A stretch of 52,677 nucleotides of DNA from Microcystis aeruginosa Ma_SC_T_19800800_S464. GTDB lineage: Bacteria; Cyanobacteriota; Cyanobacteriia; Cyanobacteriales; Microcystaceae. The notes beneath the pieces are model-generated. The model worked only from the letters and a program-made list of their open reading frames with translations. It ran no database searches and was not told the origin of the DNA. Location: NCBI GenBank assembly GCA_007095785.1, contig SFBL01000178.1, positions 1 through 52,677 of the forward strand, read 5' to 3'. Both the position numbers and the translations under genes were made by a program. Of this stretch, positions 35,428 through 47,451 are shown in pieces; positions within the stretch are counted from its first letter, which is position 1; each line of letters starts with the position of its first letter.

Positions 35428-35500
35428 AAAATTATTAAGAATAAAAAATTTTATCTTTCCTATAGTATCTTATGCTATGATGAAATACGGTGACATATTT

Positions 35501-35581
35501 GCGGATGTGGCGGAATTGGTAGACGCGCTAGATTTAGGTTCTAGTGTCTTTGATGTGTGGGTTCGAGTCCCTCCATCCGCA
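35501..35581 (+). tRNA. trnL: tRNA-Leu (UAG)
   Basis: The acceptor stem GCGGATG (35501-35507) pairs with CATCCGC (35574-35580), followed by discriminator A. The anticodon stem CTAGA/TCTAG encloses the loop TTTAGGT, with anticodon TAG at 35535-35537. The long variable arm (GTCTTTGATGTG region) and the GGTTCGAGTCC T-arm are those of a class II leucine tRNA. CCA is not encoded. Confidence 0.95.
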
Positions 35582-36192
35582 TTAACCCTGGGGTCGATGA
35601 AGTGTAACCTAATTTGGCGTTGACGACCGACGACCCAAAAGGAAAACTTATTAATTTCCATTTTTGAGACTCAGACTCAGGAGAGAGGAGATTTCTCGGG
35701 TTAGCAAATTCAGGCATTTTGTTCGATAAATAAGGATTCTTTCAGTTCAAAAACTCTTTGGTTTGTATTTTTTCCTTTTGACGGCTGACTCAGACAATGC
35801 TGACTCAACCAGAGGTTTTTAAATTTTTTAGAGGAAGTCTAATATCATTTTGCCAAAGTAATGACAATTTTTGATGGTTCAAAAATGAGAAAAATAGGCA
35901 TAAAATTGCATAAAATCACTAAATAGAGCATTTAATTGATTATTATTCATTCTTAATTCTCCTGACTACTGACGACCGGCTACTGACTCCTAACCCTCAC
36001 AACAATTTTTGATTTTTGCAAGAGGTGTATTCTAAGGCGCAATTACGCTCTGAGAGAAGAATTGGGCTTGCAGATGTCAGTCACGACTATTGAAATTGGT
36101 ATAACGTCCCTTAAATGAGTTACACCAAATAAGTGACCTAGATCGTGTGACTGGTAAGAGGGAGAGGAACAATCTATCCTAAACAGTAATAG
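35582..36192. other. Gene-free AT-rich interval
   Basis: About 600 bases with no gene. It has a heptamer-like stretch, CTGACTACTGACGACC with TACTGACTCC (about 35960-35990), also present inside the MITE at 10092, and A/T-rich DNA. The right part leads into the structured leader of the gene cluster at 36361. A promoter is expected near 36000-36150 but no consensus pair stands out. Confidence 0.5.
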
Positions 36193-36303
36193 AGAGCTAG
36201 ATAGCAGAGTACTCCTTAGCAAGATACCGCTCTAGCTCTTAATCTCAAACCAAGTGAAATAGGATTCGACAGACAAGGTTAGGTCAGACCTAATTCCGTC
36301 GAA
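36193..36303 (+). promoter_or_regulatory. Structured leader with two stem-loops upstream of the cluster
   Basis: AGAGCTAGA (36193-36201) pairs perfectly with TCTAGCTCT (36231-36239). TTCGAC (36265-36270) pairs with GTCGAA (36298-36303), enclosing a second perfect stem TTAGGTC-A-GACCTAA (36279-36293). The helices lie 58-168 bases before the first start codon and are not followed by T-runs, so they look regulatory or stabilising rather than terminating. They may also be operator palindromes for the LuxR-type regulator of this region. Confidence 0.5.
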
Positions 36304-36360
36304 ATTGTTCTTAATTTTATCGACATTTTAGCGACTACTTGCGCTCAGGAAGGGACTTAT

Positions 36361-37413
36361 ATGGATCAGCCTTTTGAAAGTGATGTTATGGAGGACTTAG
36401 CCGCTAATTCCTCCTTTGCCGATGAGGGAGCCTTCGATGCTTGGGAAGGTATGGAAAGCGAAGGTTTTGAAGGATTTGAAGCCGAAGACAGTTTTGGCGA
36501 AGAGCAATTAGGATGGGAAGATCTGGGAGGAGAGGGCTTTTTGGAAGAAGACGACTACGAGGCAGAATTAGGGGAAGATTTCGGCGATGATTACTTCAGC
36601 GATAGCGAAGCCAATGATTGGGATGCCCTAGAAGAAGCCGTTGCCGATGCCCTAGATGCGGAAGACAGCGATGAATTTTTCCGACAATTATTAGGAGGAA
36701 TTAGCCGGGTGGCGGGGGCGGCCCGTCGGGGAGCCACCACTGCGGGCCGGGTAGCTCGGGGGGTGGGACGGGCAGCCCAAACCGCCGGCAGGGTAGCTGG
36801 ACAAGCGCGACGGGTAGCCGGACAAGTGCAGAGAGTGGCTGGACAAGTGCAGCGAGTGGCGGGACGTGCCGGACGCGCTGCCAATCCCTTAGCCAGCATT
36901 TTGGGGCAAGTAGCGCCGCTGCTGCAACAGTATGCCGCCCAGGGCTTTGATGAATTGGATGCCCTAGAAGACTTAGCTGATTTATTTGCCGATGAGGAGC
37001 TAGATGAGGCTTTACCTGTAATAGCTGGTATAGCAGCCCGCACTATGGTTAGACCAGTGCTGCGCCGTGCCGCCCTCAGTAGTCCTCTCCGTCGTCAGAT
37101 CGTTCACAGTACCACCCAAGTGGCTCGAAATCTAGTCCGCCGTCAGGGACCGGCTGCCCTGCGAGCTTTGCCGAGGATAGCTCAGAGTGTCGGACAAACC
37201 GCCGCTCGTCGTCGTTTATCCCCCAGTCGCTTACCGCAAGCTATCCGACAAACCGGGGCGAGAGTGGCGGCGCAACCCCGTTTAGTGGGGCAGTTATCCC
37301 GTCCCGCCCCGGGGATGAGAAGAACTTCTGTTCGCCCCGGTCGTGGTCGCGGTGGTCTGCCCCAGCGCCTAAGACTACAGGGGCCCGTGGAAATTATGAT
37401 CACGCGCCTATAG
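36361..37413 (+). CDS. Lysine-free acidic/arginine-rich two-part protein A
   Basis: A 350-residue protein of no family I can name. Residues 1-107 hold 42 Asp/Glu and not one Lys or Arg. From residue 108 (after DSDEFF) the chain turns arginine-rich, with RVAGQVQ-type repeats coded by 21-base units. A short acidic block (DALEDLADLFADEELDEA, about 201-218) interrupts before the basic C-terminal half, which ends RLQGPVEIMITRL. There is no lysine anywhere. The paralogue at 37448 shares the N-terminal FE-S/T-DVM-E/D-DL motif, the DEFFR switch point, the RQGPAA region and the C-terminal GPV-T/E-I. The start has AGGAAGGG upstream. A precursor whose acidic segment neutralises a cationic domain is an inference. 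Confidence 0.8.
   Translation: MDQPFESDVMEDLAANSSFADEGAFDAWEGMESEGFEGFEAEDSFGEEQLGWEDLGGEGFLEEDDYEAELGEDFGDDYFSDSEANDWDALEEAVADALDAEDSDEFFRQLLGGISRVAGAARRGATTAGRVARGVGRAAQTAGRVAGQARRVAGQVQRVAGQVQRVAGRAGRAANPLASILGQVAPLLQQYAAQGFDELDALEDLADLFADEELDEALPVIAGIAARTMVRPVLRRAALSSPLRRQIVHSTTQVARNLVRRQGPAALRALPRIAQSVGQTAARRRLSPSRLPQAIRQTGARVAAQPRLVGQLSRPAPGMRRTSVRPGRGRGGLPQRLRLQGPVEIMITRL
36799..36861. repeat. 21-bp tandem repeat coding for GQVQRVA-type units
   Basis: Three copies of a 21-base unit starting GGACAAG lie in frame in gene A of the cluster and encode near-identical arginine/glutamine/valine heptads. Copy number may vary without disturbing the frame. Confidence 0.8.
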
Positions 37414-37447
37414 CTATTTCTGCCCTTGCAATTAGGAGAGAAAAATC

Positions 37448-38395
37448 ATGTATCAAGCCTTTGAAACCGATGTCATGGATGACTTGTTTTACGATCAAGT
37501 GGAAGGCCCTGCCCAACGGGGCGACTATTACGATAGCTACGATGCCGGGGATGAATTCGGGGAATACGATCTGGCCGAAGCCGATGATGATGCCTTTGTC
37601 GGTGGTTTAATTCGCAGTGGTCAGGGATTTGACGAGATGGAAGACTGGGGAGAACAGGGCTACGATTCGGGTTTTGATGCCTTGGAGGATGCCCTGGCCG
37701 ATGCCCTGGCCGAGGAGGACACGGACGAGTTTTTCCGACGCTTGGGACGCATCGCTCGCAGAGTGGGACGCAGAGTCGGACAAGTTGCTGGACGGGTGCG
37801 CCGGGGAATCGGTTCCGTGGCCCGAGTGGTCGGGCCGATCGCCAGGATGATCCCCATACCGCAAGCGCAATTAATCGGACGTATTGCCAACGTGGCTGGA
37901 AGACTTTTAGCCGATGAGGCCGATGAGTTTGAGGCTTTGGAGGACTTATTTGACCTGGCCGAGACCGAAGATGCGATCGATGCGGCCGCTCCCTTTGTTT
38001 CCGCCGTTGCCCTGCGGACCGCTATGCCCAATATCTCGCGACTACCCCGGCAAACTCGCCGGGAATTGGTCAGTAGTGTCAGCCAAGCGACACGCACCCT
38101 CGCCCATCGTCAGGGTCCAGCCGCCGCTAGAGCCGTACCTCGTATTGTCCGGGGGGTTAGTCGTACCGTTGCCCAAAGAGGTTTACCCGCCCGGTCTGTG
38201 GCCCCTGCCGTGCGTCGTGCCGCCGCCCGAGTCGCCCAAAGTCCTCGCACCGTGCGCCGTTTAGCCCGTCCGCTCACGACCACATCCCGCCCTGGTTCGC
38301 GATCGATGTCTGGGGGACGACCTTGCCCCACCTGTGGCCGCAGCCATAGCTATCGTCTGCGCGGACCGGTAACGATTCAGATTCAAGGCAGTTAG
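37448..38395 (+). CDS. Lysine-free acidic/arginine-rich two-part protein B
   Basis: A 315-residue paralogue of the preceding protein, 34 bases downstream, with its own AGGAGAG site. Residues 1-96 contain 32 Asp/Glu and two Arg. After DTDEFF (to residue 96) comes RRLGRIARRVGRRVGQVAGR. Like its neighbour it has no lysine. A mid acidic block (EADEFEALEDLFDLAETED, about 157-176) and HRQGPAAARAVPRIV are shared. Unique to it is a CPTCGRSH motif near the C-terminus (about residue 294), a possible single zinc knuckle, before YRLRGPVTIQIQGS. Function is unknown; it is probably part of the same assembly as protein A. Confidence 0.8.
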   Translation: MYQAFETDVMDDLFYDQVEGPAQRGDYYDSYDAGDEFGEYDLAEADDDAFVGGLIRSGQGFDEMEDWGEQGYDSGFDALEDALADALAEEDTDEFFRRLGRIARRVGRRVGQVAGRVRRGIGSVARVVGPIARMIPIPQAQLIGRIANVAGRLLADEADEFEALEDLFDLAETEDAIDAAAPFVSAVALRTAMPNISRLPRQTRRELVSSVSQATRTLAHRQGPAAARAVPRIVRGVSRTVAQRGLPARSVAPAVRRAAARVAQSPRTVRRLARPLTTTSRPGSRSMSGGRPCPTCGRSHSYRLRGPVTIQIQGS

Positions 38396-38419
38396 GCAAC
38401 CAACCGCAATGGGGGCAGT

Positions 38420-39703
38420 ATGGGAACGAGAGCTTTTCTACACAATAAAATTTTAGATCTAACGGCGCGAGCGCGTCGTCTAGTCAGGGTAAATTATGCT
38501 TCCGTGGGGATTCGCCCCCAAGATTTACCCTACGCTCCCTCTCCCGACCATTTTCGGGCAGCTAATCAACGTCTGGCTAAGATCGATCGACAAATTCAAC
38601 GTCGTCTTCAGCATCTACAAGGGACGTGGAACGAGTCACCGATAGAGCGAGTTTTGATTGATATAGCGCTGGTAGAACGGGAAATTGACCGCGCTCGCCG
38701 TAGTTTTGGGCTATTTTTTGAAATTTTTAGTCAAAGGGGTTCCTCTTTTGCCGCCGCTCTCGCCGCCCATGATCTGATCGCGATCGATTGTTATCGGGCC
38801 ATTCGCGAGTCCTCCCCGGGATTATTTCGCGGACCGATGCTAAAACCCTTGTGTTATATGGAACACGGTTTCTCGCCTGCTACCATGCGTCGTGGAGTTT
38901 TGCTGACTCGTCTTTTGGGAGAACCTAATCCCTTCCCGATTATCCGGATTCCTTGGGATCGAGATAATCCTTGGCAACCGGTCTTTATCCACGAAGTAGC
39001 CCACAATCTGCAAGCGGATCTGGGTATCTGGCAGGAAAATCGTCAAGCGGTGATCCGTCGCATTCTCGGCACCAGTGGCGACCCCAGTATTACTCGCATC
39101 TACGGACGCTGGCATAAGGAAGTTTTTGCCGATTTAGCGGCGATTTTATTAGCCGGTCCAGCCGCAGCCTGGGGAATGGCACTTTTTCTGGCTCATCCCG
39201 CTCCCCGTACCCTTACCTATCGTCCTGGAGGAGCGCACCCGACGGCATATCTGAGAATTTTGATCTTAGCGGAAATGTTGCGACGGATGGGATTTGGTCA
39301 AGAAGGCGATCGCCTACGCTCGGTTTGGCAGCAACTCTATAACCCTAATCGTTTTCACCGTCTGCCGGCACGTCTGTTAACCACCTCGGAATTATTGATT
39401 CCCCATCTGGTGGATGAAATTGCCTATCAAACCCGTCGCAATCTCGCCCAACAGGCCCTGGCGGATATTATTCCTTTTTCTGAAGATGATGAAAAAGCGA
39501 TTCAAGCCGGTGCTAGACAATTAGTTCAAGGAGGGGTTCCCCCCGATTTACCGCCGCGATTTCTGGTCAGCGCCGCTAGTTATGCCCTCGCTACTGGTCA
39601 AATTCCCGCCCGTCAGTTATCCAATCGGGTTATTAATCATCTTACCTCCCCTATTCCCCCATCTTCACCCAGTTTTAAAGAAATACAAGCCGCTTTGCTC
39701 TGA
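38420..39703 (+). CDS. Putative zinc metallopeptidase (HExxH)
   Basis: A 427-residue protein. HEVAH at residues 191-195, in VFIHEVAHNLQADLG, fits the zinc-binding HExxH helix. An aligned second part, WHKEVFADLAAILLAGPAA, offers Glu234 as a possible third ligand 39 residues on, as in gluzincins. A basic N-terminal 60 residues and a helical first third precede it. No signal peptide or membrane segment is visible, so it probably acts in the cytoplasm. It starts 24 bases after protein B. Processing or activation of proteins A and B is the obvious hypothesis. Family membership is inferred from motifs only. Confidence 0.68.
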   Translation: MGTRAFLHNKILDLTARARRLVRVNYASVGIRPQDLPYAPSPDHFRAANQRLAKIDRQIQRRLQHLQGTWNESPIERVLIDIALVEREIDRARRSFGLFFEIFSQRGSSFAAALAAHDLIAIDCYRAIRESSPGLFRGPMLKPLCYMEHGFSPATMRRGVLLTRLLGEPNPFPIIRIPWDRDNPWQPVFIHEVAHNLQADLGIWQENRQAVIRRILGTSGDPSITRIYGRWHKEVFADLAAILLAGPAAAWGMALFLAHPAPRTLTYRPGGAHPTAYLRILILAEMLRRMGFGQEGDRLRSVWQQLYNPNRFHRLPARLLTTSELLIPHLVDEIAYQTRRNLAQQALADIIPFSEDDEKAIQAGARQLVQGGVPPDLPPRFLVSAASYALATGQIPARQLSNRVINHLTSPIPPSSPSFKEIQAALL

Positions 39704-39768
39704 AAACTTAGGAATATAACTGATCACTGAAAAAAACCCAACACCTTTTTTCCTTGCCCTGATAAATT

Positions 39769-41709
39769 ATGAACACTTCATCTGGCAATCCGTTTAATTA
39801 TAGTAGTGCCATGGCCAAAAATAATGGCCTGATGCCCAGTAGTTCTCGTATGGCGTTGGATAATCTTCTGCGGCGAGAATTAAAAGTCAGCGATCCTAAT
39901 GATGCCAAACAGATAGCAGAGGCATTACTAAACCGCTATAAAAACAATCCTAGAGCAGTAGCTATCAACAAGGAGGCGGAGGGAGTTCCCTTTCTTTTGG
40001 CTTCTAGTGCACCGATGCCCCTGCAGCAAGCTCCCACATCCTCCGATGCAGAAATGCAGCAAGCGATCGATGATGTCAACCGTGATTTACAAGAATTAAC
40101 AACTAATACAATTCTCAAGGATCTCTCCTCGGAATTGGCGGGCTGGGCGATGGCGATCCGTTCTGCCATACAAGAGGGCTTTAATTCGGCTCGTTTTGCC
40201 CTGGATTCCCACTATCGGGATAAAACCTTCGGAATTCGTCGTAATTTAGGGGAATACGCCCGTCTCTCCCGTTTAGTCGGGGCTTTGAGTTCCCCGGTGG
40301 TTAATGTCAATTACCGCAATTTGGCTCAAAGTCTTGACGAAGTTACTTCCGTCCTCTTGGTGATGATGGGGGAAGCTTTAGCTAATGTCGGTTTTAACCG
40401 GAGTCGTTACCTGTTGCAAGTTCCCTACAGTGAATTGCAGGGACGACGAGATTCGGTGATTTATGCCCTACGCAACTTTATCGGTTCAACCCAAACTGCC
40501 TACGCTGCCAATGAGTGGCCCAGGGGTGTGGATGCTTATCGGCAACTGTACTCTTTTCTCGATAATCAGGGACAGAATGATCTTCGCTCCCTCTTGGTGG
40601 AAAATGAACTCTCCCGGGTGATGGATTCCCTGATTCATCGTGCTAGTCAGGGTAATGTGGAAGGGTTGCGTCATTTAGGGGCAACGGCTCAGTTAGATGT
40701 GCAACGCTTACGTCGATTAGTCCTGATTGGCAAGAATTTGCAAGAAGTCATGGCGGTTAATCCCGCTTCTCCCCCCCTCGATGCTTTTTTACAGGCACTT
40801 CAGTTATTTATCGATGGATTTGAAGGCTCTGGCGGTTTTCGCCTCTTACGTTTAGCACGACCACCGATTTTATTCTATGGATTGTACGGCTCCTCTGCTA
40901 ATGAGGAAACCACAGAAAATCAATTGGTAGAATTAGCTTTTCAGCGCAACCTACTGGCAGAATTATTAGATTGCTGGTTACAGTGTGGTTGTACTAGCGA
41001 TCGCTTACTGTGTCAGATTATTTTCGATAAAATTCTCTATGATGTGGACCGGGCGATCGATTTTTATGCTTTGGGAACCGCAGAAAATCGCGAACCAGAA
41101 TATCGATCTTTAGCCTATAGTTATCTGATTGATGTGGTGATTAATCCCGATGATAACGATGCTTGTCTTCCCCCAAACTCCACAGATAATCTGGTCAGTC
41201 GCATACGGAGAACGCTCACCAATATTCGCAACCTTCTTTATGTTACTGTCTTCTCATCTATTCGTGATGGGAAGTTACCTGCTATTCCTCCAGATCAGAA
41301 AAATATCAGAAAGCTAGTCGAGCAGGAATTACGCATTCAGGGAGACATGGAAAGTCATTGGCTCGATCTCGTCCAAACCATGGCTCCCTCTTGCCTACCT
41401 TTTGGCAATGGTAATAGTGATGGAGGCATATTTAACATTATGGCTAGGCTCATTCAAGATGCTTTAAATCGTGCTTTATCTTTATCCTTAAGTAGCAATA
41501 GCAATCCTACTAAATTCCGCATCGATCCCTCGACTTTGTTTAATACACCACCTCAGTACGAATTGAGTTTACGAGCCGAGGCCGACGCTTCTGCGATTGT
41601 TAATAATAACCTTGAAAATCTTAGTGAGTATCTTGAGACTATTGCCGAGAGTTTAACTGTTGATACTGGTGACAGACCCGATGACATAGATGATGATCTA
41701 GAGCAATAG
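39769..41709 (+). CDS. Large unknown protein of the cluster
   Basis: A 646-residue, mostly helical soluble protein with no family recognised. It has a polar N-terminus (SGNPFNYSSAMAKNNG), a mid segment with LYSFLDNQGQNDLRSLL, a cysteine-containing stretch LLDCWLQCGCTSDRLLC (about residues 403-420) and a strongly acidic C-terminal tail, RPDDIDDDLEQ. There are no membrane helices and no nucleotide-binding loop. It lies 65 bases after the metallopeptidase-like gene. A structural or scaffold role is possible but unsupported. Confidence 0.7.
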   Translation: MNTSSGNPFNYSSAMAKNNGLMPSSSRMALDNLLRRELKVSDPNDAKQIAEALLNRYKNNPRAVAINKEAEGVPFLLASSAPMPLQQAPTSSDAEMQQAIDDVNRDLQELTTNTILKDLSSELAGWAMAIRSAIQEGFNSARFALDSHYRDKTFGIRRNLGEYARLSRLVGALSSPVVNVNYRNLAQSLDEVTSVLLVMMGEALANVGFNRSRYLLQVPYSELQGRRDSVIYALRNFIGSTQTAYAANEWPRGVDAYRQLYSFLDNQGQNDLRSLLVENELSRVMDSLIHRASQGNVEGLRHLGATAQLDVQRLRRLVLIGKNLQEVMAVNPASPPLDAFLQALQLFIDGFEGSGGFRLLRLARPPILFYGLYGSSANEETTENQLVELAFQRNLLAELLDCWLQCGCTSDRLLCQIIFDKILYDVDRAIDFYALGTAENREPEYRSLAYSYLIDVVINPDDNDACLPPNSTDNLVSRIRRTLTNIRNLLYVTVFSSIRDGKLPAIPPDQKNIRKLVEQELRIQGDMESHWLDLVQTMAPSCLPFGNGNSDGGIFNIMARLIQDALNRALSLSLSSNSNPTKFRIDPSTLFNTPPQYELSLRAEADASAIVNNNLENLSEYLETIAESLTVDTGDRPDDIDDDLEQ

Positions 41710-41757
41710 ATGATGATAATAGTGAGCGATTTTGGCAGTAATCAAAGAGGTTCAAGT

Positions 41758-42204
41758 ATGAAAGAGGTGACAACAACAATAGCGACCCAACTAGCTGAAC
41801 TTAATGAGCATTTGGTGGCAATAATTGACTGTCTTCCCTGTGGTGACGAAGGTGATGATAGTTGTTCGGAAGAAATAGCTAAAATTCGGGAAAAATTGGC
41901 TGAAACAATAAGGACGGTAGGAGAAATAGAGGAGCAATTAGGGGGTATAGAAACAAGAGTTAAAAGACTAGAGGAATCGGTTATTTCTGGCGATTTTAGC
42001 AAGAGAAATGCTTTAATCAATGAAGTTCTTCTCTGCTTAAAAGAAGAAGATCGCCTTACCTTAGAAAAGTTATATGATTTGGCTTTTGGTGAAAGTAAAC
42101 CTGGCATTTTGTATGAAAAATTGCCTTCAGATACCGACCAAGTCAAACATCGAGAAACTTTAAATCAGTGTCGGCAAGCTCAAGCTCTCCCTCCTCGCCC
42201 ATAA
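41758..42204 (+). CDS. Small coiled-coil protein of the cluster
   Basis: A 148-residue protein. The ATG at 41758 is chosen because AGAGG lies just upstream; the frame could begin at 41710, directly after the previous stop, but without a ribosome binding site. It has an LPCGDEGDDSC segment (about residues 27-37) followed by a coiled coil of about 45 residues (EIEEQLGGIETRVKRLEES) and a C-terminal helical region, ending in a QALPPRP tail. No family is recognised. It is probably an oligomerising partner. Confidence 0.7.
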   Translation: MKEVTTTIATQLAELNEHLVAIIDCLPCGDEGDDSCSEEIAKIREKLAETIRTVGEIEEQLGGIETRVKRLEESVISGDFSKRNALINEVLLCLKEEDRLTLEKLYDLAFGESKPGILYEKLPSDTDQVKHRETLNQCRQAQALPPRP

Positions 42205-42246
42205 CAGCTAGATAGAGAAGAGGCCATTAAATAAAGGAATCCAACC

Positions 42247-43338
42247 ATGACCTACAACACCACAGAAACCATTCAACGCTTGTGGGCGACCTTTTTGAGA
42301 GATCAATTAGGAGCGATGCCACCGGAAGAGCGCCAACAGTACGAACAGCAACTCGAAGACCGTTTCGGTGAACTACTCAAGGGGGCTGCCGACGGTTCCA
42401 GTAGTCCCGATAGTTTCCTCGATTTAATCGGATTTGGACCCAAAGGACCGATTCCCTTCGAGAACGTTTCCTATCCCTATATCCAGCCGGATTTCGATGA
42501 TTCCGTCGTTCCTAGTCAACTGCACGCCGCTGCCGAACTGTACTATATCTACCAACACGAACGGATGAAAGTTTTTCAAGTCATCCAAGTGCTGCAGCGT
42601 CTGTTTAGAGAGGGACGGATGCGGATTCAACGGGGACCGGGGGCGCGAGGTCTATATTTACTTGACAAATGGAAACCTTTGCGCTATACGATCCGCGACC
42701 GGATGATGGCCTACCGTCGCGCCTTTAACTACGGTAATGCCCAACCAGCTTCGGGGGCGATCGTTAACCGCAATTTTCATCGGCAATTAGTCGGGTTTAT
42801 GGTGGCCGTTGCCCAATATTTCCGGGATTTATTGATCGGGGAAGTAATTCGCGGTGGCACTCTCATTGAACAGCGACCCTTTGGCAGTATCGGCACGGTT
42901 CAACGCATCGGCTTGGATCTGCGCTATGCTCTCGATCGCTCCACCTACGGTAACATTTTGGCCCTGACGATGGAAACTGGACATTATCTCAATACCGTTC
43001 TCAACCTTTTGGATGCAGCCGATATCAAAAAAGCCTTCGATGCTAATACCAAATGGGATGTAATCGAAATCGTCTCCAATCGCTATCTGGGGGGTGTTGC
43101 CGAACCCTCCCAACGGGCAAAAATGGCGGAAAGCGGTCGTCGGATTCTGCAATTTGTCGCCGATAACGACTTTAAAACCGCCCTCGACCCGATTTTATTC
43201 CAATCGGAACTCAGACCCATGGGTCCCCATTCGGAAGCTTGGTTAGCTGCCTATCGCATGACTCCCGAAGGCCGGGCCTTTCAGGGGGTAACTCCGGCGC
43301 TGCGCAGTGTTATCGGTTCGGGGTCTGCTGGGGTGTAA
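42247..43338 (+). CDS. Unknown protein of the cluster, 363 residues
   Basis: A soluble, mainly helical protein without a recognised family. The N-terminal part is rich in Gln and Glu (PPEERQQYEQQLEDRFGELL). The centre has aromatic, basic helices (AELYYIYQHERMKVFQVIQV and RMMAYRRAFNYGNAQ). The C-terminal 40 residues are glycine-, proline- and alanine-rich (GRAFQGVTPALRSVIGSGSA). There is no catalytic motif or membrane helix. It is 42 bases behind the coiled-coil gene and 24 bases before the next. Confidence 0.7.
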   Translation: MTYNTTETIQRLWATFLRDQLGAMPPEERQQYEQQLEDRFGELLKGAADGSSSPDSFLDLIGFGPKGPIPFENVSYPYIQPDFDDSVVPSQLHAAAELYYIYQHERMKVFQVIQVLQRLFREGRMRIQRGPGARGLYLLDKWKPLRYTIRDRMMAYRRAFNYGNAQPASGAIVNRNFHRQLVGFMVAVAQYFRDLLIGEVIRGGTLIEQRPFGSIGTVQRIGLDLRYALDRSTYGNILALTMETGHYLNTVLNLLDAADIKKAFDANTKWDVIEIVSNRYLGGVAEPSQRAKMAESGRRILQFVADNDFKTALDPILFQSELRPMGPHSEAWLAAYRMTPEGRAFQGVTPALRSVIGSGSAGV

Positions 43339-43362
43339 CGCTATTTTTTTAGAGGTGTCCCG

Positions 43363-44226
43363 ATGAGTGCCACTCTTTTGCCCGATTTCTCCATTAACCT
43401 AAATCAACGCCGTTGGTCTTGTGTCCTCGATCCCAACCTGGCCTTATCGGATTATGGTCTGCTCCTGGTCAAACAATTAGGACGATTTCTCGAATTATGG
43501 ATAGCGCGAGAATTTTGGCATCTAATTGATAATAGCGATGTTTTCGAGCGCTGGCGGCCTTGGCTAGAAGCGTCCCCAGAGAAGGGCAAATCCTCATCCC
43601 TTCTTACTCCGGAACTTTCTGCCCAAACCCGTCGCACTTTGCGGGAATGGGAAAGACTGCGACTAGAGACGGATTTAGGTAATCATCATCTATTTTGGAT
43701 CGGCGATGGTCTTGGTGAATCCCTTTTGCCCAAAGAAACCGACAGCAGTTTAGTCAGTCGTTGGGAATGGTTAGCCCGTAGTTTGGATAGACAAATTCAC
43801 ACCGATCTGCTCGGCTATGCTTTCCGAGATGCGATCGCTTTGAGTGCCGCCTTGGGGTCAGCCTTTATCCTAACCCATCGTTCCCCGGAAGATCGGGTCC
43901 GCAACCTGCCCCCGCTAATCTGTTCCACCCTAGAGAGTTGGGGCATCAACTGTCAGGAAATTGACCAACAAGATGCGATCGCTGCTTTGGAACGGGAACA
44001 ATTACGCCAGTTATTCATTCAGTCGGGAGTCTCCAAATTACTTTGGATGGGATTTCACCCAGTGGTTCTGCATTTAGTAGTTCCGGAAGCAATCAGGATC
44101 GATCCTCCTCCCAGTTGGTGCGAAGATATTTCTGCGAGCGAATTGGAATTAGAAGACTGGTCAGAAACTAGGGGAGAAAAATTTGATTTTTGGCGGGGAG
44201 CAAGGGGATTTTGGTATGAGATTTAA
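43363..44226 (+). CDS. Unknown protein of the cluster, 287 residues
   Basis: A tryptophan-rich soluble protein (at least twelve Trp), starting MSATLLPDFSINLNQRRWSC and ending WRGARGFWYEI. A hydrophobic helix, LSAALGSAFILTHRS (about residues 163-177), and SKLLWMGFHPVVLHLVV (about 226-242) suggest a compact alpha/beta fold. No family recognised. Its stop overlaps the next start by 11 bases, a sign of translational coupling. Confidence 0.7.
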   Translation: MSATLLPDFSINLNQRRWSCVLDPNLALSDYGLLLVKQLGRFLELWIAREFWHLIDNSDVFERWRPWLEASPEKGKSSSLLTPELSAQTRRTLREWERLRLETDLGNHHLFWIGDGLGESLLPKETDSSLVSRWEWLARSLDRQIHTDLLGYAFRDAIALSAALGSAFILTHRSPEDRVRNLPPLICSTLESWGINCQEIDQQDAIAALEREQLRQLFIQSGVSKLLWMGFHPVVLHLVVPEAIRIDPPPSWCEDISASELELEDWSETRGEKFDFWRGARGFWYEI

Positions 44227-44761
44227 CTTTTTAGAAAGAGGCATTCACGGTTACTATCCCTTTAATCGCCCCTTAAAAGATAGACTGAATTTAGCAGATG
44301 ATGGCGATGTTATTTATTTGCTCGAAGAAAGCGATCTAGATTGGGCTACTCCTCCGCCATTGACCCAGCGTCAGCAAGGTCTAACTCGAAGATTCCGGCA
44401 ACTGATCAACACCGCGAATCAACAACTGGCAAGGAATTTATCTGCTCTAACTAGCCAAGGGGCAAGACCATTATTAACCCCAAGAGAGCTAAGAGCAGCT
44501 ACTTACGTTCCAGCGGCCTTATATGGTAGAGCTTTGGAACGGTTGGTTGCTAGGAGGGTAAGAAATGATCCCATCTTATCTAAACATCTCAGATATACAG
44601 GTCAAGGTTCAGGACCGGATTTTCGGGGTAAACGAGGAAGTCATCTACAAGGGGTAAATTTTGAATTAACGACCCGTCGCGCTAGAGCAGATCATGTCCG
44701 TCGTCGCTATCCTAATACAAGGATCTATACCTACCGCAGACCCTCTCATCTAGGATTTTAA
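44216..44761 (+). CDS. Small basic protein with weak nuclease-like C-terminus
   Basis: A 181-residue protein. The ATG at 44216 is used because the longer frame start at 44183 lies deep in the previous gene. The N-terminal part reads NFLERGIHGYYPFNRPLKD. The C-terminal half is strongly basic and contains GSGPDFRGKRGSH (Asp135), then NFELTTRRARADH (Glu150) and YPNTRIYTYRRP. This acid-spacer-acid arrangement in a basic domain resembles PD-(D/E)XK-like or toxin nucleases, though the usual Lys after the Glu is replaced by Thr. It is the last plus-strand gene before the inverted Uma2 gene. Confidence 0.65.
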   Translation: MRFNFLERGIHGYYPFNRPLKDRLNLADDGDVIYLLEESDLDWATPPPLTQRQQGLTRRFRQLINTANQQLARNLSALTSQGARPLLTPRELRAATYVPAALYGRALERLVARRVRNDPILSKHLRYTGQGSGPDFRGKRGSHLQGVNFELTTRRARADHVRRRYPNTRIYTYRRPSHLGF

Positions 44762-44764
44762 CCC

Positions 44765-45418
44765 TCATTTTTTCAGCTGACTTCTGACCCAATTCCGAAA
44801 TGCTTTTACTAACTCTAGGTAATCTGTCTGGCCAGCTTGTTGTAAAAATATAGCAATTTCTAAGATGGGTAAATTAGGAAAAAACTGACTGGTTGGGGAG
44901 GTGATATAAGTGCCATTTTGTAATTGTTGGATGACCAGAGACTCCCCATTATAAACCCAAACCTCTGCCACGCCTAGATCTGCATAAACCTGAAGGCGAT
45001 TTTGGGAACTGCTGGTGACATCAACTTCTATGACTAAATCTGGTGCAGGGTCTTCATTGAATTCCAGTCGCTTTTTCCCCCGAACCGCCTCAATATTATC
45101 AATGTAAAAACATTCATCCGGTTCTGCACCGCTTAATTGAGGGCGTTTAAAGGTGGTAGAACCAAGGGGATAAATCGGGACTACTGATTCTTCCGCTAGG
45201 GTTTCGACAAAGCGACCGATGAGGGTTTTACTAAATTCGTGTTCTGGGGAAGGAGCCATGATTTCTAAATTGCCGCGATTGTAGGTCAGCCGCAGACGGC
45301 GATCGCTCATTTCTTCTAGCAGCGTTTCGTAGGTTTCCCAGCTAATCCCGGACAGGTGAATTATTTCAGCCGGCGGTGCGAGCCGTGTTGCAGTCATAGA
45401 TTCAAGCAAAAATCCCAT
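44765..45418 (-). CDS. Uma2 family (DUF820) nuclease-like protein
   Basis: A 217-residue Uma2 protein. The family core is visible as APDLVIEVDVTSSSQNRL (about residues 110-127) and VYADLGVAEVWVYNGESLVI. An N-terminal region, SGISWETYETLLEEM, and the EIMAPSPEHE segment are also typical. It is on the opposite strand to all cluster neighbours, three bases from the previous stop and 31 bases from the next divergent start. It therefore probably inserted into the operon later (inference). Confidence 0.87.
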   Translation of the reverse strand: MGFLLESMTATRLAPPAEIIHLSGISWETYETLLEEMSDRRLRLTYNRGNLEIMAPSPEHEFSKTLIGRFVETLAEESVVPIYPLGSTTFKRPQLSGAEPDECFYIDNIEAVRGKKRLEFNEDPAPDLVIEVDVTSSSQNRLQVYADLGVAEVWVYNGESLVIQQLQNGTYITSPTSQFFPNLPILEIAIFLQQAGQTDYLELVKAFRNWVRSQLKK

Positions 45419-45449
45419 ACTTCCATTTTAGAATACTGATAACTGATAT

Positions 45450-46451
45450 ATGAATAATTCACGACCAGATAGTGCCAATTCTCTGCGTATTAACCAACCA
45501 GACTTAGTAATGGTGGCCGTTGCCGGTCAAATTGCCCATCCGGTCGGTCAGGCTAATCCCTATCGTATCGGTCATGATGGCATACCCCGAATCCTTCCGG
45601 CCACTGGGGGAATTGTCCTCAATCAACGGGTTGGCGATCGCTGCATCGGTTTAATGGGGGATCATATTGAGCCGGGGGTGGCTCTCCATAATAATAATCG
45701 GGAAATTATCGGCAGTCGTCGCGGCCCGAATCTCGCCCTGATTACCTATGCTTGTGTGGGCAATCGCGCTAGGGTGATTACCGGACCTGCCACGGGTCAA
45801 TCGGGTCTGGTGACGGGAAAACATGGCGGAGTGGACCATGTTTTGGTAGATTTTCCCCCTGCGGTTTTGCGTCGCTTACGGATCGGCGATCGAGTGCAAA
45901 TCTATAGTTATGGTTTGGGGTTAAAATTACTAGACTATCCTGATCTGCATTTATTCAACTGTTCCCCCGATTTCCTGCGACGTTGGGGTTTAATTCCCAC
46001 TGCTCGCGGTTTACAAGTCCCCGTGACTCATTTTATCCCCGCTGCCGCTATGGGTTCAGGATTGGGCAAAAATACGGTCTGGCGTGGTGATTACGATATT
46101 CAGCTATTCGATCCACAACTTCGCCGCCGCTATCGTCTCGATACTCTTCGATTCGGCGATTTGGTTGCCATTGGCTCGGCGGATACCCGTCACGGGCCTA
46201 GTTACCGTCAAGGTCGGATTACTTTCGGGATTATTGTCCATGGCGATAGTACGGTCAGTGGTCATGGTCCTGGGGTTACGCCTTTATTAACGGGTTGCTG
46301 CCAACGTTTACGACCTCTCTACGATAGCAGGGCTAATTTTGCCGCTCTGTTTAATTTGCGATCGCTACCTCCCGCCCAAGTCTATTCTCCTCTGGTCAAT
46401 TCTTCTAGAATTACCCCTCGGTCTAGGGAAGTTTCTGTTAGTCACTCTTAG
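45450..46451 (+). CDS. DUF4438 family protein
   Basis: A 333-residue protein of the DUF4438 family. Recognised blocks are NPYRIGHDGIPRILPATGG, GDHIEPGVALHN, ITYACVGNRARVITGPATG and the later GDLVAIGSADTRHGPSYRQG with GHGPGVTPLLTG. Structures exist for thermophile members, but no function is known; the many Gly-His and Asp motifs suggest metal or small-molecule binding. It is probably part of the cluster functionally, though the inverted Uma2 gene separates it from the others. Its start has no strong ribosome binding site. Confidence 0.82.
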   Translation: MNNSRPDSANSLRINQPDLVMVAVAGQIAHPVGQANPYRIGHDGIPRILPATGGIVLNQRVGDRCIGLMGDHIEPGVALHNNNREIIGSRRGPNLALITYACVGNRARVITGPATGQSGLVTGKHGGVDHVLVDFPPAVLRRLRIGDRVQIYSYGLGLKLLDYPDLHLFNCSPDFLRRWGLIPTARGLQVPVTHFIPAAAMGSGLGKNTVWRGDYDIQLFDPQLRRRYRLDTLRFGDLVAIGSADTRHGPSYRQGRITFGIIVHGDSTVSGHGPGVTPLLTGCCQRLRPLYDSRANFAALFNLRSLPPAQVYSPLVNSSRITPRSREVSVSHS

Positions 46452-46753
46452 TTTTTTATGGTTGAGCTAGAAACTCAATTATTGTTAAGTTTTTATAATT
46501 TCTTGGCAATTTTTTCTGGAAAATTTTACAATGATCGGTTATAGCAAATCGAGCTTCGTCTTCATTAAAACCTCGATTTTTTCCCTAATCTATATTCCCA
46601 AATTAAATGTTAAGATTAGCCCAATTATTGGCAGAAATATATTACTGTAATCTTGACAAGACCGTCTTGCACCTACTTTTATTGATTGTTTCCTATTTTT
46701 CAGATAGACGAAGCTTTTATTTAGCCAGAAAACAAGTTAGGAGAGAAAAGACA

Positions 46754-47230
46754 ATGAATAACCAGCATCAGCAAAATCTTGGCTCTTTGTTCACCGATGT
46801 GTCCTATCAAGTAGTTTCAGAAATTTATAAGCACGATCATCACTACTATATCATCCATCTAAAGGAAGATCAGGAAAAAAATTATTTAAAAGAATTAAAA
46901 AAATCTTTTGTTGAGGTGGATCAATTTGAAGTCAACGGTCAATATTTTATTATTCTCGATGTATCCGGTCAAATTAAATCTTCTGCCCAAGAAATCGCCC
47001 AACTTCTCTCGGAAAGAGAACTACAAATTGCCACCCTAGTGGCCTTGGGACAGGCTAATAAACAGATAGCCCATCGCTTACATATTAGTGAATGGACTGT
47101 TGCCAGCTATTTACGGCGAATTTTTGCCAAATTAGGGGTAGATAGTCGTGCTGCTATGGTCTATCGTTGTGCTGCTCTCATTCAACTGTTGCAATCAGAT
47201 TTCGATGTTCAGGAATTAGCAACTATTTGA
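46754..47230 (+). CDS. LuxR-family (FixJ-type HTH) transcriptional regulator
   Basis: A 158-residue regulator. The C-terminal helix-turn-helix is classic: LLSERELQIATLVALGQAN, NKQIAHRLHISEWTVASYL and RRIFAKLGVDSRAAMVYR (about residues 82-145). The N-terminal 75 residues contain no response-regulator aspartate pattern and look like a small alpha/beta sensor or dimer region (HDHHYYIIHLKEDQEKNYL). The start at 46754 has AGGAGAG upstream; a longer frame to 46607 lacks this. It may regulate the adjacent cluster, but the link rests on position only. Confidence 0.85.
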   Translation: MNNQHQQNLGSLFTDVSYQVVSEIYKHDHHYYIIHLKEDQEKNYLKELKKSFVEVDQFEVNGQYFIILDVSGQIKSSAQEIAQLLSERELQIATLVALGQANKQIAHRLHISEWTVASYLRRIFAKLGVDSRAAMVYRCAALIQLLQSDFDVQELATI

Positions 47231-47236
47231 TTAGCT

Positions 47237-47451
47237 AGGGCTTGCTGAGTAAATCTAAAAACCTTATCCAACAAGGTTTTTAGACTTTTTTGACCTCAAA
47301 AAGTGCCGAACTTTGGAGTGATTGGGGGGAAAATTCCTGGACTTTTTTCCTGAAAATTAGGTAATTGACCACCTGAAAATGAGTAAAACCCCACACCCCA
47401 CACCCCACACCCCACACCCTGCCACCGGGAAAAACTTTTTCAGCAGACCCT
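47237..47451. mobile_element. MITE, 215 bp, AGGGCTTGCTGAG ends
   Basis: The left end AGGGCTTGCTGAGTAAATC is related to the right end, reverse complement AGGGTCTGCTGAAAAAGTTT. The core has a hairpin AAACCTTATCCAACAAGGTTT and CACCCCA heptamers. The right end lies six bases from the clpB stop codon, so the element probably sits where clpB transcription should end. Confidence 0.7.

What the first reader, a model, noticed from the sequence alone, without database searches (positions are those of the whole stretch)
36193..47230. Uncharacterised gene cluster built on paired charge-segregated proteins
Eight plus-strand genes from 36361 to 44761 are packed with gaps of 24-65 bases and one overlap, behind a structured leader. 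Two paralogous acidic/arginine-rich proteins and an HExxH metallopeptidase-like protein are followed by four proteins of no family I recognise and a small basic nuclease-like protein; a DUF4438 protein and a LuxR regulator follow beyond an inverted Uma2 gene. Seen: gene order, spacing, motifs. Inferred: that they form one system, perhaps one in which a protease releases cationic domains from acid-neutralised precursors, held on a scaffold of the large proteins.
Basis: partly seen in the sequence, partly recalled or inferred. Interest (0 to 1): 0.85.

Follow-up and report, generated by a model that had tools for sequence, protein, structure and literature searches.

The report
Undescribed swappable-toxin operon in many bacteria
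This cyanobacterial gene cluster is one copy of an operon, not found described in our searches, that recurs across several bacterial phyla: a fixed set of unfamiliar proteins travels with interchangeable wall-binding, wall-cutting, DNA-cutting and protein-cutting proteins that look like weapons against other cells, although delivery has not been shown.

Summary
The observation largely holds: eight tightly packed genes (36361-44761), two of them charge-split paralogues and one an HExxH protein (P3), with no Pfam or NCBIfam match over cut-off. The 'structured leader' does not hold.

The cluster is conserved. A P3 profile found 128 relatives; the 80 kept lie, by record title, in eight phyla (four phyla include isolates). 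In 56 of 64 loci with enough flank the set acidic/basic protein, P3, large protein (F2 or P4), P6 is kept, with LuxR near in 48.

Behind P6 lies a variable slot. Of 39 such proteins scanned, 21 match Pfam over cut-off: 12 wall-binding or wall-cutting, 2 nucleases, 5 proteases, 2 Het-C. Bodies are swapped behind shared N-termini: window P8 and its sister-strain counterpart share only a short N-terminus. In a group of mostly cyanobacterial loci, cargo and acidic proteins share an N-terminal tag.

Best reading: a polymorphic-toxin operon with a new carrier core. Conservation and cargo swapping are shown; assembly, delivery and the role of P3 are inferred. I recognised no immunity gene, but did not search for one systematically.

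The parts
36361..37413 (+). A1, acidic/arginine-rich protein, 350 aa; putative carrier
   Evidence: charge; paralogue of A2
37448..38395 (+). A2, acidic/arginine-rich protein, 315 aa; putative carrier
38420..39703 (+). P3, HExxH...E protein, gluzincin-like by motif, 427 aa
   Evidence: invariant residues; model pLDDT 91.1; no PDB fold match at E <= 0.001
39769..41709 (+). P4, large protein, 646 aa; identical start but divergent remainder in strain G001
41710..42204 (+). P5, 164 aa; replaced by an unrelated 345-aa protein in strain G001
42247..43338 (+). P6, helical core protein, 363 aa, most conserved between strains
43363..44226 (+). P7, 287 aa, found in the window-type subset and a few other loci
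44216..44761 (+). P8, variable cargo (or from TTG 44183); short N-terminal part shared with the unrelated-bodied counterpart in strain G005
44765..45418 (-). Uma2-family gene, probably not part of the system
45450..46451 (+). DUF4438 protein, accessory
   Evidence: Pfam; TM1086 structures 3n99 and 3dcl
46607..47230 (+). LuxR-type regulator
   Evidence: Pfam GerE; near P3 in 48 of 64 loci
35605..47447 (.). Island of about 11.8 kb between tRNA-Leu/lgt and clpB; absent at the empty site of G002 and G009

Best explanation
It is a sporadically distributed polymorphic-toxin operon. Shown: a conserved core (acidic/basic proteins, P3, a large protein of type F2 or P4, P6), a LuxR regulator usually nearby, and a variable slot whose proteins combine shared N-termini with interchangeable bodies. 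Inferred: the acidic/basic proteins and P6 form a carrier complex; cargo joins it through its N-terminal leader; P3 trims leaders or carriers; the F2/P4 protein, which varies in size and sequence, sets the target or binds cargo; and the loaded complex, for which I recognise no signal peptide, ATPase or membrane channel, leaves by lysis or an unknown route and harms neighbouring cells.
For: Conserved set in 56 of 64 loci; joint occurrence of P3 and P6. Slot proteins: 21 of 39 scanned match Pfam over cut-off, 12 wall-binding or wall-cutting, 2 nucleases, 5 proteases, 2 Het-C. Body swaps: P8 against its G005 counterpart, L029 against L030 with 147 shared N-terminal residues at 73%, L104 against L033, L020 against L034 sharing the body but not the N-terminus. 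Tag [FLMW]FE[AILV]P in the first 25 residues: 8 of 44 cargo, 10 of 140 acidic/basic proteins, 0 of 540 controls, 1 of 5570 rejected ORFs. QWLFEAP DNA pattern: 8 places in 14 genomes, 0 in the reversed control, all consistent with the operon. Acidic/basic domains in the cargo slot of L027 and L088. Island with an empty site.
Against: No experiment; no immunity gene recognised (not searched systematically); 18 of 39 slot proteins have no Pfam match over cut-off, P8 among them; leader motifs were chosen after seeing the data and cover a minority of cargo; in L095 the QWLFEAP motif lies inside the called ORF, not at its start; the general acidity of cargo N-termini is only weakly above controls (p 0.02). 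The M20, amidohydrolase and DUF4438 partners are unexplained. No secretion route is visible.
Confidence: 0.55

Rival explanations
1. One reading: acid-neutralised cationic, membrane-active precursors (A1, A2) are cut by P3 to free antimicrobial domains; the large proteins scaffold this.
For: Charge split in A1/A2 and their relatives; protease-like P3 next to them.
Against: Does not explain the variable enzyme slot or the tag shared by cargo and acidic proteins.
Confidence: 0.12
2. Intracellular defence (abortive infection): P3 responds to phage and frees toxic bodies and membrane-active parts inside the producer.
For: Sporadic island beside a tRNA gene, variable toxic domains, no recognised immunity gene.
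Against: Many slot proteins are wall-directed (12 of 39 scanned), which suits action outside the cytoplasm; no PADLOC family matches A1-P8 better than E 0.02.
Confidence: 0.13
3. Cell-wall remodelling, development or nutrient operon of the producer: peptidases and wall enzymes serve the cell itself.
For: M20, amidohydrolase or DUF4438 partners in 36 of 64 loci; wall-directed cargo.
Against: Nucleases among cargo, swapping of bodies between close strains and sporadic presence, 3 of 12 same-genus genomes.
Confidence: 0.12
4. The slot encodes cargo of a contractile injection system (eCIS or T6SS) coded elsewhere in the genome.
For: Cargo types resemble those listed for PVC toxins, such as Tox-OmpA with PVC-metallopeptidase (passages of PMC3482391); 9 of 12 carrier genomes searched hold a sheath and/or gp25 match at E <= 0.001, in G430 on the order of 80 kb from the locus.
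Against: Neither family is found in G000, G162 or G066, the last a single contig listed as 100% complete; no core protein matches a contractile family.
Confidence: 0.05

Closest known systems
Polymorphic toxin systems (Zhang et al. 2012, PMC3482391; abstract start in a search listing and passages seen)
   Same: Shared N-termini with exchangeable C-terminal bodies; nuclease, peptidase and OmpA-type domains
   Different: No known trafficking domain recognised; leader tag shared with charge-split carriers; no immunity gene recognised
Extracellular contractile injection systems such as PVC (PMC11495950; abstract start in a search listing)
   Same: Diverse cargo with N-terminal signals; overlapping toxin types
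   Different: Sheath and gp25 both absent from 3 of 12 carrier genomes; no AAA ATPase recognised in the cluster
Glycine-zipper contact-dependent killing proteins of Caulobacter (Cdz; recalled, only a reference entry seen)
   Same: Paired proteins with a glycine-rich, membrane-prone stretch (seen by eye in relatives)
   Different: Much larger and charge-split, with a protease, large partners and enzyme cargo; no exporter seen

Membership tests
Polymorphic toxin system | Shared N-terminus with exchanged toxin body | tested here: met
Polymorphic toxin system | Toxin-type domains in the exchanged part | tested here: met
   21 of 39 slot proteins over Pfam cut-offs, 6 of them wall-binding domains only; toxicity itself not tested
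Polymorphic toxin system | Cognate immunity gene next to the toxin | not tested
   none recognised while reading loci; no systematic search
Polymorphic toxin system | Known trafficking domain (T5SS, T6SS, T7SS, PVC, MuF and others) | tested here: not met
   no Pfam match over cut-off in window A1-P8; none at E <= 0.01 in 10 core proteins of other loci
Contractile injection system (eCIS, T6SS) | Sheath (PF04984) and gp25 (PF04965) genes in the genome | tested here: not met
   neither in G000, G162, G066; at least one in the other 9 of 12
Gluzincin metallopeptidase | HExxH with a downstream glutamate | tested here: met
   H191, E192, H195, E234 invariant in 54 sequences
Gluzincin metallopeptidase | Zincin fold | tested here: inconclusive
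   confident model but no PDB match at E <= 0.001 by Foldseek
Phage or prophage module | Phage homologues | tested here: not met
   best PHROGs E for A1-P8 0.0043; no P3 relative in viral contigs; no P6 match in phages
PVC-metallopeptidase (DUF4157) carriers | DUF4157-type HExxH domain | tested here: not met
   P3 has no Pfam match at E <= 1, nor L042 P3 at E <= 0.01

The most novel reading that the evidence does not exclude
A new class of protein-only toxin delivery apparatus, spread over several bacterial phyla, in which charge-split carrier proteins and leader-tagged enzymes assemble with P3, P6 and a large targeting protein, without contractile, ATPase or channel parts.
Probability: 0.4. 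Interest if true: 0.95.

Novelty: categorically new. Interest (0 to 1): 0.82.

Why it matters
If right, a widespread way for bacteria to package and perhaps deliver toxins has gone unnamed, with a short leader that would let cargo be predicted and exchanged. It is testable at once: leader, carriers and cargo are few and small, and carriers occur in cyanobacteria and in soil Actinobacteria and Acidobacteria. Even if delivery is wrong, a conserved operon of protein families unknown to Pfam and NCBIfam over several phyla needs an explanation.

Tried and rejected
Structured leader upstream of A1: rejected (z -0.60). Phage origin: no match. Contractile-system cargo: disfavoured. P4 as homologue of F2: not shown (hhalign probability 0.4%, shallow P4 alignment), so they are treated only as positional counterparts. 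Known folds for P6 and P3: none at E <= 0.001; the ClyA row for P6 (E 0.6, TM 0.2) is treated as noise. P8 C-terminal part in plasmids: no match. General acidity of cargo N-termini: weak against controls (p 0.02). Literature: ten searches of open-access full texts listed no paper whose title or abstract start describes this operon; I opened passages of two papers only, and most subscription papers are not held.

Rows dropped: the slot list had 65 ORFs; I removed 21 by hand as flanking, accessory or badly called genes, leaving 44, of which 37 were scanned with Pfam (P8, 36); the L020 counterpart and the L026 protein were added, making 39. L026 is a divergent P3 locus without a recognised P6. 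Of 86 loci with P3, 64 had enough flank. ORFs were called by a simple script, so some high-GC starts and small ORFs are wrong. No tree was built; 'group' and 'type' are loose words here.
Full report
WHAT IS THERE. Eight + strand ORFs run from 36361 to 44761 with gaps of 34, 24, 65, 0, 42 and 24 bases and one overlap. I call them A1, A2, P3, P4, P5, P6, P7, P8. None of A1-P8 passes a curated cut-off in Pfam or NCBIfam; the best E-values in PHROGs and PADLOC are 0.0043 and 0.024, both for the coiled P5. A1 and A2 are paralogues with acidic N halves and arginine-rich C halves (-28/+15 and -18/+15) and no lysine. The upstream 'structured leader' folds no better than shuffles. Against two sister strains A1, A2, P3, P4, P6, P7, DUF4438 and LuxR show dN/dS of 0.04-0.31; P5 and P8 have too few changes to judge.

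GENOMIC SETTING. A search with A2 found the cluster in 3 of 12 same-genus genomes and in none of the 47 other genomes of family and order. The genus is probably Microcystis; that is my inference and no call names it. In G002 and G009 the left flank ends at 35604, just past tRNA-Leu, and the right flank resumes at 47448 with 78 bp between: an island of about 11.8 kb beside a tRNA gene. G007 and G008 also lack it but hold about 0.7 kb of other sequence there. In G005 the tRNA side is the same but clpB lies elsewhere.

DISTRIBUTION AND CONSERVATION. A P3 profile found 128 relatives in genome contigs. The 80 kept split by record title into 21 Cyanobacteria plus 1 Vampirovibrio, 24 Actinobacteria, 17 Acidobacteria, 8 Chloroflexi, 4 Proteobacteria, 2 Planctomycetes, 2 Verrucomicrobia and 1 Armatimonadetes (sorted by me). 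Many are metagenome bins that may be misassigned; isolates are among the cyanobacterial, actinobacterial, acidobacterial and proteobacterial ones, and a Paraburkholderia plasmid carries the set too. The viral collection gave none. Clustering ORFs of 88 loci gave a recurrent order: one or two acidic/basic proteins, P3, often a small protein, a large protein (F2, or P4 in the window type), P6, a variable region, with LuxR at one end. Of 64 loci with P3 and enough flank, 60 have an acidic/basic protein upstream (45 two or more), 59 F2 or P4, 62 P6, 56 all of these, 48 LuxR nearby and 36 an M20 peptidase, amidohydrolase or DUF4438 gene. In 386 cyanobacterial genomes P3 occurs in 7 and P6 in 7, together in 6; the odd ones, G146 and G223, hold divergent members. 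Ten core proteins from other loci match no Pfam family at E 0.01, and nine match no NCBIfam family.

THE VARIABLE SLOT. Behind P6 the genes differ from locus to locus. Of 39 such proteins scanned with Pfam (P8, 38; one, L026, lies behind a divergent P3 without recognised P6) 21 match over curated cut-offs: six with wall-cutting or related domains (M15 twice, M74, VanY, SLT, DUF2272), six with wall-binding domains only (PG_binding, OmpA; one also has DUF4056), two nucleases (Endonuclea_NS_2, GIY-YIG), five proteases (trypsin three times, M35 twice) and two Het-C. The other 18, P8 among them, have none. Replacement is visible between close strains. L020 (G005) keeps A1 to P7, DUF4438 and LuxR at 93.7-99.7% protein identity, but its P8 counterpart shares only residues 16-51 with P8 and continues into a PG_binding protein whose body is 57% identical to the end of the L034 cargo. 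L021 (G001) keeps P8 but has another P5 and a P4 that diverges after about 80 residues, with dS 1.40 against 0.02-0.18 in the other genes that have synonymous changes. Elsewhere L029 and L030 share 147 N-terminal residues at 73% before different bodies, and L104 and L033 share 92 residues before VanY or DUF2272 bodies.

LEADERS. In a group of mostly cyanobacterial loci (one contig is titled Acidobacteria) both cargo and acidic/basic proteins carry [FLMW]FE[AILV]P within 25 residues of the start: 8 of 44 cargo, 10 of 140 acidic/basic proteins (one of these, in L088, sits in the cargo slot), 0 of 540 control ORFs, 1 of 5570 rejected ORFs. A DNA pattern for QWLFEAP gave 8 places in 14 genomes and none in the reversed control; by coordinates seven fall at operon loci, and the eighth follows a P6 end on a separate short contig. 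Most of these had helped to define the motif; the new ones are L146 and L095, and in L095 the motif is inside the called ORF. A second motif covers 5 (strict) or 6 (loose) of 44 cargo and no control or rejected ORF, but 0 or 1 of 140 acidic/basic proteins. In the window genus the P8 leader pattern occurs once in each of the 3 carriers and in none of the 9 others. In L027 and L088 an acidic/basic domain itself sits in the cargo slot. The motifs were chosen after seeing the sequences, so the counts are descriptive.

CORE PROTEINS. P3 has invariant H191, E192, H195 and E234 in 54 aligned sequences and a confident model (pLDDT 91.1, pTM 0.88) without a PDB match at E <= 0.001. P6 is helical (pLDDT 78.7) with no match in PDB or viral models at E <= 0.001. 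Of ten large or neighbouring proteins scanned, five have weak, below-cut-off matches: transthyretin-like in three, Ig-like and CarboxypepD_reg in one (a neighbouring protein, not F2) and Tailspike_C in one, which hints at beta-sandwich modules. Hydropathy shows no clear membrane segment in A1, A2, P4, P5, P6 or P8; P7 reaches 1.51 and P3 1.97.

MECHANISM. Shown: conserved operon, variable enzyme cargo, shared N-termini, sporadic island. Inferred: carriers and P6 assemble, leaders load cargo, P3 processes, F2/P4 gives specificity, LuxR controls, and release is by lysis or an unknown route. Against it: no immunity gene recognised (not searched systematically), leaders covering a minority of cargo, unexplained M20, amidohydrolase and DUF4438 partners, no experiments.

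COMPARISON. It works like a polymorphic toxin system, but no core protein could be placed in a known trafficking system. Sheath and gp25 families are both absent from 3 of 12 carrier genomes, while the other 9 hold at least one of them, so contractile machinery is not needed for the operon to exist. I rate the core categorically new, while the cargo side is of a known kind. Ten literature searches (listed under Tried and rejected) listed no description; they cover open-access papers only.

Noticed in passing
L018:8605-18776; L019:3716-19456: Distant P6 relatives (21-26% identity) sit in a different cluster with S8 peptidases, a peptidoglycan-binding protein or amidase, and a repeated unknown family (f53), on a Tolypothrix plasmid and a Burkholderia pyrrocinia plasmid; perhaps a sister system.
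   Followed up: partly
L026:9943-15425: A divergent P3 lies before a 407-aa protein and an 865-aa protein with a trypsin domain and an acidic N-terminal region.
   Followed up: partly
L027:13783-14811; L088:10657-11949: Acidic/basic carrier-like domains occupy the cargo slot; the L088 protein carries QWLFEAP at its start and a similar QRDWLFEV stretch further in.
   Followed up: partly
L043:10737-13658; L080:1652-4687; L049:10375-13383: Some F2 proteins reach about 1000 aa through N-terminal stretches that look like repeated beta-sandwich modules (read by eye), perhaps a targeting part.
   Followed up: partly
window 47254-47284: A 12-pair terminator-like hairpin with a T run lies just behind the LuxR gene (the region as a whole has no more such sites than shuffles).
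   Followed up: no
window 44765-45418: An inverted Uma2-like gene sits between P8 and DUF4438; related genes lie near several other loci (L023, L025, L088, L095), so it may be a common neighbour.
   Followed up: no
window 35500-35604 and 47448: The island abuts a tRNA-Leu gene; empty sites in G002 and G009 have 78 bp between the flanks. No integrase was looked for.
   Followed up: partly
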